Positions 26,701 to 50,700 of a stretch of 64,000 bases of DNA are shown here, piece after piece; the stretch's first letter is position 1, and every line of letters begins with the position of its first letter. Under the pieces are notes generated by a model. It did no database searches. It was not told the origin of the DNA and saw nothing but the letters and a program-made list of their open reading frames with translations. The stretch lies in contig NC_087081.1 of the NCBI RefSeq assembly GCF_026151205.1, positions 16,108,837 through 16,172,836 on the forward strand. The letters run 5' to 3'. The position numbers were made by a program, and so were the translations under genes. The DNA comes from Bolinopsis microptera (lineage: Eukaryota; Ctenophora; Tentaculata; Lobata; Bolinopsidae).

Positions 26701-29700
26701 CCCACATCTACATTGAACAGAAACAATACGTGTCTGCCATACAGGTTCTTATAGTCAATTTTAATGTTTAAGTTATATATAATAAATATAAAAGTCATAT
26801 TAAAGTTTATCTGGTCACGTTATCTCAGTTCTCATAGCGGTTCACTCTTAGCGGTAATAATATGTACAATTCATCTAACTGTTCACTCTCAGCGATAATA
26901 TTATGTAAAATTCATCAAACTGTTCATTCTCAGCGGTAATATGTACAATTCATCGAACTGTTCACTTTCAGCGGTAATAAACAATTCATCTAACTGTTCA
27001 CTTTCGTTTTTACACGATTAAAAGTTTATAAGCCTGAATTTAACAGTTGAATTAAACTACAATTTACAACTGCTTTCCATGTACAAGTAAAGCGCCTTTT
27101 CTCTCGAATCTATCTATTACTGGTGGTTAAGTGCCGGCTAGGTTCTCCGTGATTGTATGAAACCAGGTCACCGAAGAATAGAAAAAGAAGCTCGAAAGGC
27201 CTTAGACGAAGGAAGTGTCGTGGTACTAGTGGATGTGGGAGAAGAAATTCCACTTGAAGCAATAGCAGTGTTAAACAAAGGGCTAGGTTTTGTACCAACC
27301 CCAAAGGTTGACACGGAGGAGGCTCGTTTGGACATGCGCTTAACAATAAACAGAATCGTAACTGCCTCAACAAGAAGCCTCAACAGCTCACCTACAACAT
27401 CATGTGAGGACCTATCAACGCTTGATTTGGAACAGACCGCCCCAACTGGACTACCTCCACAACTATCAAGGAAGTATTACGGTAGAAAGCCCCCAAGTGA
27501 GGACCAATCCATCAATGAGATTACAAACACCATGGCAGCGGACTTAGATCAGCAACTCATTAGAGGACCTAAAACTAATCTACAGCCTAAAAACCTCAAC
27601 AAGATGGAGTCCCGTGGCCTCAAATGGTTAGAAAGAATGATCAAACATGAAAAACTTGCAATAGTTGCAGCTGACAAAGGTGGAGCCGTGTTACTAGTGG
27701 ACCCAGCTATGCTAAAGCGAAGAACACAGGAAAAGCTCGACAACCCCCTATTGTATAAAAAGCTCGCTAAAGACCCTACGCAAGACCTACACCAGGAACT
27801 ATTTGATTTATGGATCGAGGGAAAAAAGAAAAACTTTGTTACACCAAAAGAAGCTAAAGACATCATGGGTATTACCAACAATCTAAACATTGATGGTACA
27901 GTTACTAACAACAAGAGTACTTCTTCCCACTTCAAACCTGGTAAAGCTTATTTCTACCCCACCCTAAAGATCCACAAACTTCAAAAGGAAGACCTTAAAC
28001 CAGGAGTCGAACCCCCCTTCAGGCTCATCACGGCACTCCAGGATGGAATCACAAAACGCAGTGATGTTTTCCTCGCTAGCCAATACCTGAAGGATCTTGA
28101 AAAAGATTTCTGCTCTGACCTTTTGACTGATAGCACTGATGCCCTTCAATGGTTGGATTTCGTGGATAGTGAACATTCCCCAGTACAGAAGAAAGGCTTC
28201 AGATCATTTACCTACGACTTTAAGGCCCTCTATGATTCTCTAACACCACCCCTCGTCATAGAGGCCCTGAATTCCGCTATGTCATCATGCAGAGAAGATT
28301 GGTCTGAAGATTTCTGCAAATGGCTCACCAAATTGGTGGAATTGAGCCTTCGATCCTCTGCTGGGGTGTTCGATCAAAATTGGTTCATACAGCTCATCGG
28401 TATCCCTACGGGTGGATCACTATGTGTCCAAATCGCAAACATAGCAGTCTACTACCTAATGAACAAATGTGTTTATAGTAACCCAGAGCTCATGAATAAG
28501 ATCGTATCAGCCAGGCGTTACATTGACGACGGAGCAGGTTTGTTTGAGGGAACTACAGATGAGTTCAAAATTTGGATTGCAGATGTTAACAAAGCACTCC
28601 TCTCCCATGGCCTAATCATTGATGAATACCAAATAGAAGATCCTGGTAAATACGTATCTTTCCTTGACATAATGTTCACCTTCGATTCCTTAGGATCCCT
28701 CCAAACGGATTTGTTCATAAAACCAACAGACTCCCGTTCATATCTACATTTTAAAAGCTCCCACCCTAACCATATCTATTCCGGTATCGTGTACTCTCAA
28801 TGCCTTAGACTCAGAAGGATCATCAACTGCCAAGAACGCCTGGAAGGACATCTCAACAACCTCAAAAAAGCCTTCCTTGCCGCATGTTACCCTAGAAAAA
28901 TGATTGAGAACATCAGTAATAAGGTCCTCAACACAGCAAGATCACTGTCACGCAAAGTTCAGGCTCCGGATGACCAGACATCATTACATCTTCCAATCAG
29001 GGTCATATCTACTTATGGTAGTGATGATGATCTGGTGTCTGTGACTAAGAAGTATGAAGAACACCTCTCAAGAACGAGGAGTTTCAGTGAAAGTGACACT
29101 GCTGAAACATCCCAAGAGACCTCCTCAACATCCGCCATGCCTAGGAAGACAATTTTCAGTTACACAAAGAAAACAGGGCCAAGCCTAAAATCTCGCCTCG
29201 TCAAATTGAAAGAACTTGCTTTAGGAGCTCAACATGGCCCAACCAGCAAATGCAATGTGCCAAGATGCAAATGTTGTGAACTTGTCAAAGGCACCCGTGA
29301 ATTCAAAGTGAACGGCAAGAAGGTTAAAGCTTCCCCTGGAAACTGCCAGAGCTCAATGAAACTAATAAATCAATGAAACTAATAAATCAATGTTTTAGCT
29401 CATTTTACAAAGTCAAATATTTAAAACAATTAAAATTGTATAGTGCTCAATTTGTAAATGACTAGTTGATCTTTGCTATTGGAAGTTTGTCAAGGACTGG
29501 CAGCTAGCGGGGCAAGGAATGCACGGGCTTAGGGGCTTTTGTGCACACCAGAACACTAGCTCGGTAGATTTTTGGAAACTAGAAGGACTGAAAACTAAAA
29601 TTGTTTTTGATGGAGGCTGAGGCATGTTTTTGAGAGGGACGGTATAATAGCTTGTGGTAACAACTGGCCTTTACTTTAATAGGATGAAGTTTTAGTTTTA

Positions 29701-32700
29701 GGACAGGAAGAAGGCATTAAGAAGATTTGCTCTTTGTTTACAAGGCAGAATATAAGCAATGTTGGTTATAATATGTATCAATATCTAGATCTTCGTTTAT
29801 CAATTTTCACTAAATGGGTTTAAAAATTTTAATAGGGAGGGAAATTCATCAACTTTATTAAGTACCTATCAAAAATAAATCTTATATCAATGTAATATAT
29901 TAAAAATCATAATCCTAAGTCTAATAATAAATCTGTTAAAAACACTTTCTCACTACACTGCGCTCACACACGTTAGTAAGACAAAGGAAAATGCACACCC
30001 AGCTAATTTTCAATTTCAAGATAATCATTTTGGATGTGTGGACCCTAGGGTAGACTTAATGTCAAAATTTAGATTAGAGCATTCGAAATCTTTGTTTGTC
30101 CAATCAAGATCAGCATGGTTATGCTGGTTGACGAGCAGTGATTGCTTCATCCTAGACTTCAGGCAGGCCACACTTAGACAGTAGTCACGTATACCAAGCT
30201 TAGGCACAATTACGTTCCAAGTACGAGTCGTTCTGCTATTGAAGTTGTCAGGGGGGTCTGCTTGGCTTAGTATAAGGGTGGGTTTCCTACTTGAGCAGGT
30301 GAAATTTTCATGGAGGGAAATCGGAGCACGGAATTTCATGATTTTATAGAGCTCAAGGAAACAATGGTAAGTGTACAGGTTTTGGACGGCAAGTATTCCG
30401 TGTTCCTTGAACAAAGGTTTCGTGTGCTCTTTCAAGAAAAATTTTTTGTTCAGATTTTGGTTGCCAAACGGTCGAGCACGAGCACAGGTCTTAAATTTAT
30501 CTAGGTATGCCTCCCTGTCGCCAAACAGTACCCTGAGACAATATTTTTGTGCTTTGAATACAGAACTTATACGAGTTTTGGCTGCCCCACCCCAAACCGT
30601 GATACAATAGGAGAGGTGTGATTCAAATAGAGTGTAATACAACTGGCGGTGTAAGAAATCTGGGAGGGAGCAGCGTAGGCGGCAGAGAGTTGATGTTGCA
30701 TGGCTGAGAGAACGCCTAAGTGATTTTATATGTTCTTCCCAGGTTAGCTTTTCATCGATGACGACTCCCAGAAACTTAGCAGATGCAACTTGTTTTATTG
30801 GAAAGTTATCAATGGTTAGAGTATATTCAGAATTATTGTCAGTCTGGGAGGACGATGCTGGTTTAAAGTGAATGAAACAGCATTTAGACATGTTGACATG
30901 GAGTTTGTTTGCTCGCATGTAGGAATATAAACTAGCTAAAAGAGAATTACCACGCATGTATGCCTCCTTTTTAGATTTCCCAGTCACAAATACATTGGTG
31001 TCATCAGCGAAGGTGACAAATGATCCCAAACTGGAGCTGTTGGCGATATCATTAATATATAGGAGAAATAAGAGAGGTCCAAGAATCGAACCCTGAGGGA
31101 CTCCAAACTGTATTTTCAAGGCGTCAGATTTCTCACCAACAACTTCAGTATATTGTGATCTATTTGTTAAGTAACTTTTTATAAGATCATTTGCCACCCC
31201 ACGTATCCCATAGCCCTGTAATTTGACAAGTAATGTACCATGATCTATTGTATCAAAAGCTTTGCTAAGGTCTATGAATATGCCTAAGACATGATGCTTA
31301 AGTTTTAGAGATTCAGTTATAAGGTTTACTGAGTGATTAACTGCTACAGCATCAACAGCTACAACATCATTTATCTGTTCCAATGTAGTGTCTGTGGAAA
31401 GGCTTACGTCGGTCGCACAACTCGATCTCTACGGGTTAGGACTGGAGAACATAGGGTCAAATATTATAAACTTTTAAATGGTGATAAGGTAGATGAAACA
31501 AGTGATGAATATAGTTTGGGTTTACATTTGTTGGATCATGGTTTTAGACAAAGGGAAGATTTTAACAAAATTTTTAATGTGTCAATTATTGATAATTCTA
31601 GTCCTAAAACTTTGGATGTCCGTGAACATAAATATATTCAACTACTCAAGACTTTAAAACCTTTGGGAATTAACACTATAAATCCTTTTGGCCTTCCATT
31701 ACTCCTAACATCTTAATTTTAACTTTATAACCGTTTTAAGAGTGTTCAGATTTTTAAAGGAATTTTGGGTTTTACTAACTTTTTACAATTTCTAGGGCTT
31801 ATGTCACTGAAGATGACGCCTTGCAACATGTTTGACGATAGCCTGTAGATTGATAGTTTGATCTCAGTATTTACAACAATTCATCTAGTTTGATTGATTC
31901 AAAGGGAAACAAATTCCTCTGAAACCAGGTCACATGATGTGATGCTGGTTTCTGAGGGGCTTTATATAGATCTCACGGGTCAACTATTGTTCCCTGAACA
32001 CTTTGTGCGTGTAAAATGAAAAATATGAGATATGTTGCGAGTGTACTTGATAACTCACAGCTCTCAGGTAAGCAGCTATTGTACGAACATTGATTACTTT
32101 GACAAGCATGTTACTAGTTGATACAGTTAAAATTAGTACATTTTGTGGTGTATTTTTAGTGTCAGTATTCATTGTGAGACTTTGCGTAATGTCAGCTAAA
32201 AGTAGAAGACTTGAAGATATGTACTGTTTTTAGCTGGTAGATTGGAATATTATATAGTCTATATATATTATGAAAGGTGGTTCTTAGAGCTAATTTTACT
32301 AATTTTTAACTAATTTCACAACTAAAATTAAATACATTTATTGAGAATTATGTAATATATGTATGTGAGAAATTGTCATCAGTACAAACGGACTTTGTAA
32401 AGGTTAACAAATCCAATAACTCTATCGCTATTGGTTTTCCTGATTCAGAGGCAAGGCAAAATGCTACTCAGTTGATTGATGAAGATTCTTCAAAGGGATA
32501 TACTTTGCGTGAAGCAAAGAAGATGTATCCAAAGTTAACAATAGAGAACGTCCATAGGGACGATGCCTTCCGCAGACTTACAGCAGACGATGATGATAAA
32601 CTAAGAGATAAGTGCAGATCGCTACTGAAACCGTCCATCTTGGCCAAAAATGACGGAGTACGCAAGCTTGTGGATGCTGGTCACAAAGGGGGGGATGCAA

Positions 32701-35700
32701 CGTCAATTAATGTCAGTATTCCATAAAAACCCCAAACTGACATTGACATTAATTGACATTAATTGACATTAATTGACATTAATTGACATTAATTGACATT
32801 AATTGACATTAATTGACATTCATTTGTCTTGAAATTTGAGATTATCATTATTCGATAAATATTCAAGATATTCACGTCTATGTAAGTTAGACCGGTTCAA
32901 AAAAACAAAATGTCCTTGAATAATTATGAGTATGTTCTTATCTGTTGATCCTTAGGTTCAAAGACCACCAACAAAAATTTCAGCTTCAAACTCTTCCATC
33001 TTCGGTCCCCACCGGCCACGCCCATATTTTATTGGTTTCTTATACAGGTAAAATATCTAGAATCGGCTTTTTTAGTATGAAGGAGTAATGCTAGCTGTTT
33101 AAGATTCGTTATTCAAATATAAATGTCATGAAGGCATTTCGTTTAATGTGGGTTTTAAGTTCTGATGATGTTGAGAACTATGCCCTTGGATGGCCACGCC
33201 CATTTAAAGGATGAGGGGACCTTAGAAAAAGTTTTTTTCTCGTGCAAATCCTTTTATTACATTAATCGTATAAACCACTTTAGTGAAATCCGCAAAGTTG
33301 TATTTCATTCGCGCGCCGAGATATCCAGCCAAAACAATTTGAACCTGTGACGTCAATTATGTGAGTTGCTCTGATCCGCGCATATAGAAATACAGGTAAA
33401 ATGAGCGTGCGGGCCGACTAAATTACTAATTAAGAATAAATTAACAATTTACGATACTAACGAGCCTATAACCAATGGAGAGGAGACTTTTTATGACCGG
33501 TTGAAAAAAGAATTATCACCCTACGATAACCATGAGCCGAGATACACCTGGAATAAGATTGAAGTCACACAGAAAGGCATGTAAATTATGTATATTTATA
33601 GCTCCCAACGTAACACCTAGCAACTCCCTGTTTCGTACCACAGTTGATATATCAACATGTCATATCAACACAACACGGTCCTAATAAAAATGGACCGGGT
33701 AGGTATGAAATGCATTTCTTCATTCCAGTTGGACAAGCACCAAGCACCAAGCTTTTAAGTTCTAACTCACTATGTGACACTACTTCTAACGTAAGCAAGA
33801 TTTGCAACTATTACACCAAGCAATATTATACCAAGCATAGCAGACGAACACATCCACATTCGTTACGCTTTACACTCAAGTCACAGCAAACTAAAACGGT
33901 AAATTATAAATGAGTTTACAACTAAAGGCCGGTACACGCGCAGTGTCAAACCGCACGTGCGTACTCAGATAGGACTAGAGGCGCCAAGGGCCAGCTAGTA
34001 AAATGTCTTCTACTACATCATACATTCTTTTTAATTGTGTCCATATCGGGTTTCAAACAAGTCAAAACAAAATAGCAGTTTGTGGTTTAGTTAGCGGATG
34101 CTACTTATCTTAGCTATTTATAAATAGAAATACCTACTACAACTACAAGAAAGCCTTTCTGAGTTACATTTAACTATTATTATTAAAGAGAATTATTCGT
34201 AACTTAGACTAATTCAGTGCAACCAAAGATACCGCTCTCGCAAACGCCAAAGGTAACACGACGTAATTAAAACAGAACAGGACAAAATGTTGACACGAGC
34301 AAAGAGTGCGCGCGCACGTTGGTCTTAACACATAAGTGACGTCACAGCCCAAAATTGCTATCAGCCAATAGGAGCGCGGCGTGATATTGCACGAATTATC
34401 GATTTCACAGTCCGGCGTATTTTTTGATTCTACACACTTTCACAGGACTTAAACGCGAATATTTGGAAGTAAATTCTAAGGTCCCCTCATCCTTTAAGAA
34501 AATTAAATTTCGGAAAACCGTATTATTTTAGCTTTATTGTTTAATGATCTGAATTTTTTCACATTTCACATTTCCATATGTGATAGTAGTGAATAAATTG
34601 ATGATATAAACGTTCTAAAGTGCTAAAAATATGGTAGAACTACATAATCTCTGGTCGAAAAATATCGTGTCAATTAATGTCAGTATTCCAAAATTTTGCA
34701 AAACTGACATTGACATTAATTGACATTAATTGACATTAATTGACATTAATTCACATTAATTGACATTAATTGACATTAATTGACGTTGCATCCCCCGTCA
34801 CAAATTGGAGGTTGTGTACATGTCACGTTTTACTGAAAATAGCAAGTATTTCACATTTGCACTTAAAGTCTCTCCTGCTATCCGATCTTGCATCATGAAT
34901 GACCAAGGAAGAGCTCTTTATTTTGGAGATACCTGCCATCCTGTGTCCGATCGAGTTCATGTTGTTTCTTGTTACCATTGTCAAGGAATTGGTCACACTT
35001 CTACAAACTGTCCTACCAAGGTTGATGATCCAACTTGCTTCCGCTGCTCAGGAAACCACCTGTCTAAAGATTGCAATAACAAGTCCAAAAGTGAAGCAAA
35101 GTGCTGTGCCAGGTGCAAAAACTCGAAGAATCCCAGTGATAAAGCACAGCACAAGTCCCATAATGCAGCATCAATGAAGTGTCCAACCATTGCCAGAGAG
35201 ATACAGAGGCTAATGATGAATACAGAATATGACTCAAAAAACATGATGTGACACCAGGACACCATCACAGTCCACCCCATGCTCTGAAAATGGCAACCTT
35301 TAATGCAAGATCCATTTGCAACAAAACGGTATCTGTACTAGAGCTACTGAGAGAAGAGAACGTGGATATATGCTTCCTGACAGAGACTTGGCTGAGAGTT
35401 GATGATAAGGCCAAAATCGCTGAGGTGAAAGACCACAAATATGATATTATTAGTGCTCCAAGACGTGGGAGGGCCAGGGGTGGCGGTGTTGCCTTCATCT
35501 ATGACCCAAAGGTTGTCTCCCTGACAAGAAACAGTGTGAAGTTTAGTTCCTTTGAGGTTTTGGAAACTGTCTTCAGAGCAAAATCTCACTTGATCAGATT
35601 TTGTGTCCTTTATCGATCAACTCAAGTTTCTTCTCATAAGAAATATCAAGAAACCCGAAAAAAATTGTTTCTTGAACAGTTTTCTGATTACATGGATACC

Positions 35701-44700: not shown

Positions 44701-47700
44701 GCGCAAGTTTGAAAACGCACAACATTGACAACATACCAGATTTTGGACGAAAGTAATCGGAGGTATCCAACGAATAACGCGCTATAATAGCCACTATGTT
44801 TCCTTCCCATAAAGACCTCCCATTTTTCCATGTGGAGTTCCACAAGGGGCACTCAGATATATCGTAATCTAAAACTTCCAACCCGTTGCACTCATATTTC
44901 ACCCCTTTTTCTGTTCGTGTGATTGTCCATATTTTCTCTTGCTCTGTAGGAAGCTCAACTGGAAATATTGTTGCATCTCCACAAGAACCTATCAAGTATT
45001 TAATCGGATTTGAGAAGAGCACTCGAACACTCCGTTGAGCTCCGTCCTCATTTTGCAGGAACACGGCGAGCCATTTGTTACTTCCTTTAGCAATGTTCGT
45101 TTTTATTTGCAGAGGTGTTGCTTCCAAATCAAAATTATAAGTTGTTCCTTTCTTGATTTCTAACCAATCTAATGAAATTAACAATGGTATTAATTAAATG
45201 ATTGTTTAACATCTTTATCTCTTGTCTTAAAAGGATTTAACAGCAACCACTTGGTAAACTAATAACAATTTTTGTTTCGCAATCTGGGCACATGTTTTTA
45301 AGCCAGCTAAGTGTCAAAATAATCGGTCTACAATATTGAAGTGAGAAGAAATATAAGAACCATCTTACCGCAGAAAGTGTTATCTTCGTTAACTGATGTT
45401 CCTTCAGCACATGGTATACATGAAGATGCTCCTTCATAACTGTAACTGTTATCAGGGCAAGGTGTACATTGTGACATTTCACCAGTCATGTATGTTCCAG
45501 CTTCACATGGTTCTGTTAATAAATACAGTTAGCTAAATCTTCAACCGAACATCAATTGTTACGATAATATAATAAAGAAAGGTTTTTCTGAAAATATATC
45601 CTTATTTTACAATTATACAAAAATTGTAAAATTTATTTATCAAATATAACAAACTAGAAACCCGCTAGTCGAAAGCTACAACTACAAATCCAAAGGGTAT
45701 AGAATCCTCTAAATCAAATAAAAATAGCATAGTACTCACTGACAAAGAAACAGGACCTGAAAGCGGTATACCAGCCACCATGCTCCGTGACACTAACAGT
45801 GTTCACCATGTAACATTTTCTAGTGGACATGTTAGCAGGACCAGTCACTACTGCCTGGCAATTCTGTTCTTTCTCACACCACGCAATACAGTCATCATCA
45901 TTGATTCTTGGTTTCTCAGCTATTATCGAAGATTCTGGAACCTTACCTAGATCAGGCTGCCAACAATCTGGAACGATTTAGTCGGTTTAAATGAAATATC
46001 ATGTTACAGAAATCTTTTAGAAGTATGATTATAATGATATATAATATAATCCATTTATAAACAAATTTATCGTTTAAACCAAGATCAAAACATCACACAA
46101 TATTATAAATTAAGAAGCCTATGTACCTTTGGCTGTAACGACAACCACTTCAGATACCGAGATAACTCCCTTAGCCTTCGTCAACATCACAACATCTCCA
46201 AACATATTGCAGACAATAGTGTAGATCTGATCTGTCTGCCTCAGTTTATAGCTGAGCTTTAGCAGTCCGCACAGTGTGACACTATCCTCTATCCCAACTG
46301 ACACATCCACATTGTTATGAGGATCCACACAGTCTTCTCTGAACTGTTCCTCGCTCTGTCCACAGTTTGAAGGAAACCAGTCCTTGTAGAACTGATAGTA
46401 GATAACCACCTGAGGAATTTGTTTCCTTTTGAATCAATCAAACTAGATGAATTGTTGTAAATACTGAGATCAAACTATCAATCTACAGGCTATCGTCAAA
46501 CATGTTGCAAGGCGTCATCTTCAGTGACATAAGCCCTCAAATTATTTGTTATATAGAAGTGTTGAAAGTATTAAAAGATAGATAACCACCTTGTTGATGA
46601 AGACTGGTGTATCAAATTCCAGTTTTAGCCAGCCTGCTCCATCGTTAGTTTCAGTGGCAGACATTGTGGCGATGTTCTGATCAGTAGCATAGCTACCCTC
46701 CTTATCATCCAGAGTTCTGCCTTGAGTTACTTTGGAGGGTACAACTTCTCCAGGTAATATCGCTCTAACTGAGGGGTTTCTGGTGTTATTCTCCAGGTAA
46801 TATCGCTCTAACTGAGGGTTTTGTAGTGTTATTCCCTAGCTCATGTGTTAGAAACCTTACACAGTTACTATGTCTCTATCATTATATTATGCTATATTGT
46901 CACGTGGTTTTGGAGAAACTATATTGTTTATATGGCATTTGGTTATTGGTAACATGATGCCTTTCAAAATCCTAGACAGCTCTTTTTCATAGAATAAATT
47001 CGTATTCACTACTCACTACTCACTACTCACTACTCACTACTCACTACTCACTACTCACTACTCACTACTCACTACTCACTACTCACTACTCACAACTCAC
47101 TACTCACTACTCACTACTCACTACTCACTACTCACTACTCACTACTCACTACTCACTAACCTAAATCAGAGTTAACACAGTTGTATCCTCCAATTGGGCA
47201 TCTAGTAAAAGCATTGTCTTTACAGTTGCGACTTTCGAACATTATCGGTCTGCACCCTGTTTCACATCCTGTGTTCTGCTTATTCGTTTTGCAGCAGTAT
47301 TCTCCACTTCTATAGACAAATGGGTAGTTGTCGGGGCAAGCTGAAATCAAAGTGTTTCCTAGTCTTTTTTAGTGTTATTTCATAATTTTGAAATTATCTC
47401 CCCATATATTTTAAAAATAATTAAAATCAATTTGAAACCAAAAATATTGAACTGTTATTATATTTTCTTGATTTCTGCTGTTAATGCACCAAATATTTCA
47501 AAGCTTTACCTCCAAACCCAAAGATCTCTATCTCGGCTATGGAGGGCGCATGTTGTCCCACCCCAGTCTTAGCTTGACCAGTCACCATCACCTGATCACC
47601 CACCACACCATCACAATCCAGTGTATATGTCTGAGCTGCTTCAGTGACTTCCGCTGCTACCTTTATCACGCCGCACTCTGTCACTTTCCCGGTTGCTGTC

Positions 47701-50700
47701 CTGACAACAGTTACCTGCGCGTTATCTAGCTGGGCTTGACATTCGGGACACTCATCTAAACGGTTTACTACCACTATCTTCGAGATAGCGTGAAGTTTGC
47801 CCAAGTTAAATTTTATCCAGGTTTCAACCCCTTCATTTGAGCTTTGTGGAACGTATACGGTAGTGATGTCGTTATCGTACGCACGCTCAGCTGTATAGTG
47901 CTTATTGTAAGGGGTAGTTGAGTCTGAGGACTGTATGTTGATTGTCTGACCTGAAATAAGATATGATGAGAAATGAGAAACCTATGATTAAAGGGATCAA
48001 ATTTTGGTTATTTCTGATATATCCTATATTCTAATTCAACCCCCATTACTTCAATAATAGTATCTACAATAAAGTGAATCCTCCTTCCTACAAAATATCA
48101 AATAAAAATCTGAGTTTTGATGGTTAAAAGTATATATTATTCTATTTAGTAAGTAAAACACGGCTAGAATTCGGAGATTTTCTTGATTTAGTCCTGTTTT
48201 TACTGATAACAATTGGAAATATAGTATTTAACTGAAATTACACCCCAGATGTACGAAAACTGTCTAAAGAAGTTCTACAGCTACCAGAACGTGGAGATCC
48301 TGTTGTACCTGGCTCGTGCTCACTTTGTGTGTGGCAAGTTGGAGGAGACTCGGCGCATTCTTCTTCAAGCCCGCCATATGGCTCCTCAGGTTTGACAACT
48401 CTTATTTTTGTATTTTAATATTTTATTTAACATTTTTTAGAAATTTATTTATTTATTTTTATTAAAAATTGAAAATATTTGTAATAACAAATAAAAAATG
48501 TAATCTGCCAGGTTGGAAAACTAGATTTTTGGGATGTTATTTTATAAGGAAAATAAAGGAGGATATTTTTATCGTGGGCTGCCACTTTTTATCATACATA
48601 GCCTGGATATGATTTTGACACGTGACACATGATTCAGATTAATTAATCAGACTACATGAACCTTCATACAATCCTTATCATATATATCATTATCTTCTCA
48701 TATCATTACAACATTACACTACACAGTACACCTGTACAACTTCCCCAGGATAATTTAATACTGTTCAACTTGTCGTACGTGTTACGTCATCTCGCTACAA
48801 ATACACTTCGTGACGAAAAGAGCGGGCTGGAGGATGTAGTGAGTGCCGTGAGGAATTTGGAGCTTGCGCAGCGCTTCTTCACTATGCTCAGGTAAATGGG
48901 GAACACGTGGGGAACACGTGGGGAGCACGTGGGGAACACGTGGGGAGCATGTGTGAGGCGTGGGGCCTACGTGCTCCCCACGTGTTTGGAGCTTGCGCAG
49001 CGCTTCTTCACCATGCTCAGGTAATTGGGAACTTTAGGTACTTTAATTGGGGGACTTTTAGCATACTTCTTGGGAAACATTGTCATAAAGTTGAGATGTT
49101 TTTTCGTTTTGCATATAGAACGATAAGGACCTCTATATTCAACAAGTACTACAGTAAAAACCCGATTTACCGCAAACACCGATTTACCGTAAACCCCGAT
49201 TCACCGCAAATCCCGTTTTACCGCGGCTTTTTCCTTTCTCCCAAACTCCGCGGTAAATCGCGGTATTACTGTACTACCCAAACAAAATACCAGATCTTTG
49301 CTTTAAAAATCATTTTAATTATAGTAAAGCAACAGAAAGACAGAAGTACGACATGAACCATGCCGGGGCGGAAGCGCGGCAGTGTACTGATCTGCTGTCC
49401 CAGGCGCAGTACCACGTGGCACGTGCACGTAAACTTGACGACGAACAGCGAGCTATCAGGTAATATCATATAATTAAATAGCTTAATGTCAAATAGTTTT
49501 TTGTACAAATTACCAGTATCATATAATTACTTGAACACTAGTACAAATCTATTACATTTATTGAGGATGATACAGAAGGAATGTATTTAATGTAGTTATT
49601 GAGGAGTCCTAAATCTCCTCATATCCTTAAATGGAGTTTTCTTTCTACCATATTATATGATTAAATAGCTTAATGTCAAATCTGTTTTGTTAATAGTGTC
49701 TCGGATTAAGTTTATTTATTTACGTCACATTACTAGCTATAAAAGGGTGTCCCAATTAATAACGATGTGATCACAATTGCAGAATGCAACAGGACAAGGC
49801 AAAGCAGGAGAGCGAGAACAAGAAAAGAGAAGTGCGGGAACGCCTGGAAAAAGAAAAAGAGGATAAGCACAAAGCAATGTTGGTACAGCGTGAAGAATTC
49901 CGTGAAAAAGCCAAGAACATTCTTATGTTTGCTGACGAACCTGAACCACCACGAGCTCCTAAAGGTAAATATTAATCCTTTTTTATGCTACGATTGCACG
50001 TGTTACTGTATTGGGTGTATTAGCTTTAAATATTGTTGCATTTTCCCAATTTTTGAACACCACGTTTCCGTAGAACGTCCAAATGTTCAGGAACCCCCCC
50101 CCCCCCCCCCCCCCCCCCTTGAAAATTTCAGAATATACACGTATTATGTAGCCAGAAATCGGAAGTATGCAGCAATAAATGTTGTCGTTATATAATACAT
50201 TGTAACGGTGTCTTATATCTCAGGACGAAGGAAGAAGGATGATGAACCACTATACAGCAGCGGAGAAGCTTCTTCAGATCCAGATAAGGATGGTTAGTCT
50301 ATCACCTGTTATAGTTAATAGTTTATCACGCGATCTTTTGAGAAATGTACAGTAAAACCCCGATTTACTGCGCCCCGATTTACTGTACATCTCGATTTAC
50401 TGCGGTTGTTTTTTTCCACTAAGTTTGAGTTTTACTGTACTAGCCAGAGACGTGGAATATTACATTCATTTCATTGATAATTTAATTTTGGGATGATCCT
50501 CTCCGAAATCAACCTCTTGGTAGTTGCCATTTTAAATTTAATTACAAAAAGAGCGCAGCCGTGCATTGTCGAATACTTTTTTGTTGATTCAGCGTTGTTA
50601 TATTCACTGGTTTGTAATTTGTAATGACTAATGGTATTAGTATTTAGAATAAACTGAATAATTTACCTTAGATGGGCTGAATGAGGAAGAGAAAGAAAAG

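What the first reader, a model, noticed from the sequence alone, without database searches (positions are those of the whole stretch)
46399..46591. An intron born from a Penelope-like insertion, with both splice sites made by the target duplication
The F5/8-like domain is split by a 180-bp intron. Its DNA is a Penelope-like 3' fragment almost identical to 31794-31919. The 13-bp direct repeat TAGATAACCACCT flanks it; on the minus strand this is AGGTGGTTATCTA. Splicing uses AAG/GTGG in the first repeat and AG/GTGG in the second, so removal restores the pre-insertion codons (FINK-VVIYY) exactly. This is the textbook model of intron gain at an AG/GT proto-splice site, rarely caught with the donor element so intact and nearby. 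The near-identity to the other copy implies youth.
Basis: partly seen in the sequence, partly recalled or inferred. Interest (0 to 1): 0.93.

Follow-up and report, generated by a model that had tools for sequence, protein, structure and literature searches.

The report
Intron born from trans-spliced retroelement copy
In what looks like a comb-jelly genome, a short RNA made by stitching a spliced leader onto the tail of a retroelement seems to have been copied back into a gene, where the duplicated target site supplied both splice sites of a new intron; a second conserved gene shows the same anatomy.

Summary
On the minus strand a 167-bp insert (46412-46578) lies between identical 13-bp repeats, AGGTGGTTATCTA. 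Removing 46589-46410 (180 bp, GT..AG, phase 0) leaves one open frame over six modelled exons; retaining it gives six in-frame stops. Of 75 paralogous hits counted, 72 run through this position in one piece.

Only 124 nt are the Penelope-like 3' end. The preceding 41 nt are the genome's spliced leader (SL): 1,342 copies, clustered SL-RNA genes, and likeness to a published ctenophore leader. The window's element has TACTAAC..TTTCTAG, a 3' splice acceptor, exactly at the junction. The insert is therefore best read as a retrocopy of a trans-spliced element RNA, not a piece of the neighbouring copy.

A second case exists (contig C8): a 162-bp SL+element insert between 13-bp AGGTTAAGACACT repeats splits an exon of UTP20. 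The joined protein matches human UTP20 without a gap across the join.

Splicing is inferred; no RNA data exist here. Two of 42 AGGT-adjacent SL sites split exons, so this is occasional, not a proven prolific introner. Verdict: very probable intron gain, a new variant of transposon-made introns.

The parts
46579..46591 (-). target-site duplication, copy at the 5' (gene-sense) end; holds AG|GTGG, the 5' splice site
46577..46578 (-). two extra bases TC between duplication and leader (origin unknown)
   Evidence: other copies have C, TC, ATC or nothing there
46536..46576 (-). spliced-leader (SL) sequence, 40 of 41 identical to the SL-RNA gene
46412..46535 (-). 3' end of a Penelope-like (GIY-YIG) retroelement, joined to the SL at its splice acceptor
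46399..46411 (-). target-site duplication, copy at the 3' end; holds CAG|GTGG, the 3' splice site
46410..46589 (-). inferred gained intron, 180 bp, GT..AG, phase 0
   Evidence: splicing inferred
46590..46768 (-). host exon 3a (ends ..FINK)
   Evidence: model
46127..46409 (-). host exon 3b (starts VVIYY..)
   Evidence: model
47510..47960 (-). upstream host exon with a first F5/8-like domain (start not determined)
47161..47340 (-). host exon 2, cysteine-rich
   Evidence: model
45740..45967 (-). host exon 4 (weak PAN/MANEC-like similarity)
45340..45512 (-). host exon 5, cysteine-rich (end not determined)
27142..29373 (+). 744-codon open frame of the window's element; read as reverse transcriptase from recalled motifs only (no family hit)
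31333..31713 (+). GIY-YIG endonuclease-like frame of the same element (20.2 bits, cut-off 22.6)
31773..31795 (+). TACTAAC branch-like motif and TTTCTAG acceptor: inferred trans-splice acceptor
31796..31919 (+). element 3' end that follows the SL in the insert

Best explanation
A Penelope-like retroelement RNA was trans-spliced: the spliced leader replaced everything upstream of the acceptor TTTCTAG, leaving an RNA of about 165 nt (41 nt leader + 124 nt element 3' end). This RNA was reverse transcribed and inserted into a coding exon with a 13-bp target duplication, AGGTGGTTATCTA. The AG|GT in the two copies of the duplication became the 3' and 5' splice sites, so the insert is removed as an intron and the protein is unchanged. 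Shown: the joint structure, the leader, the acceptor, the duplication and the intact frame. Inferred: the RNA intermediate, the machinery, and splicing.
For: SL identity: 1,342 copies with at most 2 mismatches, 0 in the reversed control; 33 leader sites in loci L040-L069 precede 22 different sequence groups; 75 SL+GTRAG sites, 73 of them clustered on C3, C5 and C13, followed in the C3 array and two single copies by stem-loops and a T-rich ATCTTTTGG-type site; the Hormiphora leader also ends AATTTGAG and shares CAACACTACT (PMC8527503 section 37). Trans-splice join: of 97 element copies found at the junction, 86 have TAG and 10 GAG there. Intron: exact duplication, phase 0 among phase-1 introns, six-exon frame open; 72 of 75 counted paralog hits unbroken at the site. 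Recurrence: UTP20 case with 13-bp AGGTTAAGACACT repeats, 175-bp GT..AG, joined exon aligned without a gap to human UTP20 2178-2243, E=7.5e-13, flanking exons collinear at 2073-2164 and 2260-2344, single locus with no intact second copy.
Against: No transcript data. The 5' splice site AAG|GTGGTT lacks G at +5; an upstream AG (AAAAGG) lies 17 nt before the acceptor. The host gene has many paralogs, so a dead allele could persist. No relatives were available for the empty site. AGGT-containing duplications also occur in apparently non-coding places (e.g. L011). The reverse transcriptase frame has no family hit.
Confidence: 0.84

Rival explanations
1. The insert is not spliced: it is a recent, disruptive insertion in one allele or in a dispensable member of a large family, and the AGGT in the duplication is luck.
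For: 72 paralogous exons exist, so loss could be tolerated; no RNA data; AGGT lies in 6 of 21 resolved repeats, but that sample was partly chosen for AGGT.
Against: The rest of the modelled gene is open. The same anatomy occurs in UTP20, apparently single copy and recalled as essential in other organisms.
Confidence: 0.12
2. The 41-nt module is part of the element itself (a terminal repeat), not a spliced leader, so no trans-splicing was involved.
For: It lies at the 5' end of many element copies.
Against: It precedes 22 unrelated sequence groups in 33 sites, sits in clustered SL-RNA-like genes, resembles a published ctenophore leader, and in non-leader copies the junction is TAG.
Confidence: 0.02
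3. An older intron already lay here and the element inserted into it, the repeat being coincidental or a later conversion.
For: SL retrocopies do sit just inside what look like existing donors (L095, L105, L107; judged by eye).
Against: Nothing of the intron lies outside insert plus duplication; 72 of 75 paralog hits have no break there; phase 0 differs from the phase-1 neighbours.
Confidence: 0.02

Closest known systems
Introners (introner elements), Gozashti et al. 2022, PMC9860276 (section 7 and passages read)
   Same: Mobile element makes introns with flanking duplications; one class (Florenciella, Fig. 2E legend) takes both splice sites from the insertion site.
   Different: Those families are described with DNA-transposon hallmarks, 3-9 bp duplications and 5 to more than 2,000 introns per family; here 13-bp duplications, an RNA-derived insert with a spliced leader, and two introns from two element families.
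Dinoflagellate retrogenes with DinoSL relics (PMC6050394, PMC12014239; search listing and abstract starts only)
   Same: Genomic leader sequence marks reverse-transcribed trans-spliced RNAs.
   Different: There the copies are genes; here a non-coding retroelement tail inside an exon serves as an intron.
Ctenophore spliced leader (PMC8527503, section 37 and passages read)
   Same: Leader of similar length and sequence, hundreds of genomic copies (718 in Hormiphora, 491 in Mnemiopsis).
   Different: That section discusses the copies as shared first exons or mapping artefacts; here sampled copies largely head retroelement-like sequences.
Trans-spliced transposon transcripts of Hydra (PMC12220107, passages read)
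   Same: About 30% of TE Iso-Seq reads carry the leader.
   Different: Shows RNA only in the passages read; here the DNA copies and an intron.
Penelope-like elements (recalled, no paper read)
   Same: GIY-YIG-like frame after a long frame, variable target duplications, head-to-head partial copies.
   Different: The reverse transcriptase could not be confirmed by any search here.

Membership tests
Spliceosomal intron | GT..AG ends and restored frame | tested here: met
Spliceosomal intron | removed from the transcript | not testable with these tools
   no RNA reads held
Intron gain by insertion | target duplication coincides with the intron ends | tested here: met
   13 of 13 bp; also UTP20
Intron gain by insertion | homologues without the intron | tested here: met
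   paralogs only: 72 of 75 counted hits unbroken; orthologues not available
Spliced leader | dedicated SL-RNA genes: leader + donor + Sm-like site | tested here: met
   Sm site judged by eye; no Rfam match
Spliced leader | found on ordinary capped mRNAs | not testable with these tools
   published for related ctenophores
Retrocopy of a trans-spliced RNA | leader joined exactly at a splice acceptor of the source | tested here: met
   86 TAG versus 10 GAG (and 1 GAC) of 97 copies; acceptor at 31773-31795
Penelope-like element | GIY-YIG endonuclease | tested here: inconclusive
   20.2 bits, E=7.6e-4, below the cut-off 22.6
Penelope-like element | reverse transcriptase of the Penelope clade | tested here: inconclusive
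   no Pfam, NCBIfam or PDB family hit; YIDD-like motif recalled; structure job failed
Introner | many introns in one genome from one element family | tested here: not met
   2 of 42 AGGT-adjacent leader sites split exons, from two different families; only perfect leader starts were searched

The most novel reading that the evidence does not exclude
Spliced-leader trans-splicing feeds intron birth: it trims retroelement transcripts to about 165 nt and uses up their strong 3' splice acceptor, so the reinserted copies carry no acceptor of their own and become clean introns whenever the target duplication contains AG|GT. With over a thousand leader copies in this genome, such copies would be a continuing low-rate source of new introns in ctenophores.
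Probability: 0.4. Interest if true: 0.9.

Novelty: new variant of a known kind. Interest (0 to 1): 0.77.

Why it matters
How new spliceosomal introns arise in animals is poorly documented, and the best-known mobile sources are described with DNA-transposon hallmarks. Here two introns can be traced to reverse-transcribed RNAs that had themselves been trans-spliced, with every joint still readable. It gives a concrete prediction (short leader-tagged inserts at AG|GT) that can be tested in ctenophores and other leader-using animals with long RNA reads and population genomes.

Tried and rejected
Rejected: that the window copy at 31794 is the donor (it lacks the leader). Rejected: that the 41-nt module belongs to the element. 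Rejected as SL-RNA genes: tandem leader units with 181-bp spacing on C2, which lack the GTAAG donor and repeat another sequence. Searches for further introns: exact element end + AGGT gave only the window; with up to 2 mismatches 38 hits against 21 in the control, the extra AGGT-like ones not examined. The shorter pattern gave 29 hits (control 188); its 12 new hits were chance, with one degenerate leader without a repeat. A first repeat search used fuzzy leader starts and misplaced repeats; it was redone (106 distinct leader sites, 21 with a repeat of at least 9 bp in reach, 6 with AGGT, only window and UTP20 evidently coding). The 106 sites are not a random sample: many were fetched because AGGT stood beside the leader, and short flanks hide long elements. 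Rows dropped before the paralog count: of 105 matches, 3 are the window itself and 27 start after residue 71; 75 were counted, of which 72 span the site (5 of these contain a stop) and 3 do not. No splice-site matrix was built. Rfam found nothing in the leader array. Pfam gave only sub-threshold F5/8, PAN and MANEC hits for the host and none for the 71-residue UTP20 piece. The Derelle 2010 leader paper is not held. Literature searches for a Penelope/trans-splicing link, leader + retroposition/intron gain, leader + ctenophore + transposable element, ctenophore + intron gain, and retrotransposon + target duplication + intron gain listed nothing that, by title and abstract start, describes this; listings only, open-licence papers only.

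Full report
Setting. The window lies in a 264.65-Mb genome of 232 contigs. Contigs C1 to C13 are 15.2 to 26.2 Mb long (lengths) and sum to about 258 Mb. Thirteen chromosomes and the leader described below fit a ctenophore: the Hormiphora paper gives 1n = 13 (PMC8527503, passages). The species was not identified.

The observation. On the minus strand the exon coding ...FINK is followed by AGGTGGTTATCTA, a 167-bp insert, a second AGGTGGTTATCTA, and the exon coding VVIYY.... Cutting at AG|GT in both copies removes 46589-46410, 180 bp, phase 0. If retained, the frame meets six stops. My six-exon model from 47960 to 45340 is open throughout; the four flanking introns are phase 1. Donors in the model are GTAAAG, GTTAGT, GTGGTT (the new one), GTACAT and GTGAGT, so a donor without G at +5 is not unique here. 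The exon ends were set by me from splice motifs, not by transcripts.

Ancestral state. A protein search of the genome with the joined exons gave 105 matches. Three are the window itself, split at the insert. Twenty-seven start after the site. Of the other 75, 72 cross residues 50-71 (the join is at 60/61) in one piece; five of these contain a stop. The split is thus peculiar to this gene among those seen. No orthologue could be searched.

What the insert is. The last 124 nt (46535-46412) match window 31796-31919 with one difference. The first 41 nt match the leader TTTTAATACTTTCAACACTACTATATAACAAATAATTTGAG with one difference. The leader occurs 1,342 times in the genome with up to 2 mismatches, and 0 times in the reversed control; that total includes SL-RNA genes and tandem repeats. 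In loci L040-L069, 33 leader sites precede 22 sequence groups, including several element 3' ends and retroelement-like frames. Seventy-five sites read leader+GTRAG: 37 on C3, 12 on C5, 24 in two clusters on C13, and single ones on C1 and C2. In the C3 array and the two singles, the only ones whose downstream DNA I read, the leader is followed by GTAAGATTAAG..., two stem-loops and an Sm-like ATCTTTTGG or ATATTTTGG. The fold is moderately more stable than shuffles (z -2.4); Rfam has no match. The published Hormiphora leader, GAGTTTCAAACTTTTCAACACTACTTTAAACAAATTAATTTGAG, is plainly similar, and the same section says Mnemiopsis and Hormiphora leaders both end in AATTTGAG (PMC8527503 section 37).

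The junction is a splice junction. At 31773-31795 the window's element has TACTAAC, a T-rich run and TTTCTAG, immediately before GGCTTATG. Of 97 genome copies found with the junction pattern, 86 have TAG before the element sequence, 10 have GAG and 1 GAC. The pattern began with six leader letters, so it favours leader-bearing copies and misses shifted ones such as L028. A first DNA search shows the same split: matches either end at the junction or run on through the leader (40 scored candidates). Several leader-bearing copies have their own target duplications, such as ATGATAGAAGC (L004), AGAAGTATAACTA (L002) and GTGACAATAAGACA (L005). The economical reading is reverse transcription of a trans-spliced RNA. 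That the element is Penelope-like rests on a sub-threshold GIY-YIG hit and recalled motifs; the long frame has no family or structure hit, and a structure job failed.

A second birth. Searching AGGT within 5-13 nt of a perfect leader start gave 17 sites, and a variant pattern 25 more. All 42 were read (and the window). One, L096 (C8:3065984-3066434), has AGGTTAAGACACT on both sides of a 162-bp insert: the first 38 leader nt and the 3' end of another element family, about 75% identical to L031/L032 over a gapped 174 nt. The flanks join to ...LREYKDYSLSELE|VKTLLQYIADDIHNRNRQ..., aligned without a gap to human UTP20 2178-2243, E=7.5e-13. Neighbouring exons match 2073-2164 and 2260-2344. The genome holds only this locus, in two pieces. 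The intron is 175 bp, so retention would also shift the frame.

How common. Two of the 42 AGGT-adjacent sites split exons; coding status of the other 40 was judged by eye and by open frames, not by homology. Some (L095, L105, L107, perhaps L093 and L127) appear to lie just inside existing donors. AGGT-bearing duplications also occur where no gene is evident (L011, L098, L108, L112). This fits insertion without preference for genes, with survival in exons only where AG|GT lets the insert be spliced out; that inference was not tested statistically.

Mechanism. Shown: leader, acceptor, exact join, duplication, intact frames, two loci. Inferred: the trans-spliced RNA as template, the enzyme, and splicing of the two introns. 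One consequence deserves a test: trans-splicing uses up the element's strong acceptor, so the reinserted copy has no competing strong 3' site and the AG of the duplication is the natural acceptor. A weaker AG (AAAAGG) remains 17 nt upstream in the window copy.

Comparison. The introners of Gozashti et al. (PMC9860276, section 7 read) include a class that takes both splice sites from the insertion site, but those families are discussed as DNA-transposon-like with 3-9 bp duplications. Transposon transcripts carrying a leader are reported in Hydra (PMC12220107, passages). Leader-tagged retrogenes are known in dinoflagellates (listing only). My searches listed no paper joining these into intron gain; that covers only the open-licence library.

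Noticed in passing
G000:C2:1844400-1845700 (L070), C2:5123300-5124700 (L071), C1:24530100-24530900 (L072): Leader sequences amplified in tandem, mostly 181 bp apart, joined to a repeated TCAGGGAAGCGGCACTGAG sequence; not SL-RNA genes.
   Followed up: partly
L024, L025, L030, L049, L060: Leader-tagged element copies standing head to head, leader against leader, as if inserted as inverted dimers.
   Followed up: no
L010, L018, L110, L118, L120: Leader directly followed by open frames that look like retroelement ORF1 with a PHD-like cysteine pattern (by eye): leader-tagged LINE-like copies.
   Followed up: no
window 46761-46821: The acceptor of host exon 3 is duplicated 43 bp apart (CCCTCAG|TTAGAGCG); use of the upstream copy would run into a stop.
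   Followed up: partly
L095, L105, L107: Leader retrocopies lying only a few bases inside what look like existing 5' splice sites of coding exons.
   Followed up: no
window 29374-31332: About 2 kb separates the two frames of the window's element and holds a minus-strand open frame (30025-31383), probably another insertion.
   Followed up: no
window 32732-32841: Tandem 10-bp repeat ATTGACATTA just downstream of the element.
   Followed up: no
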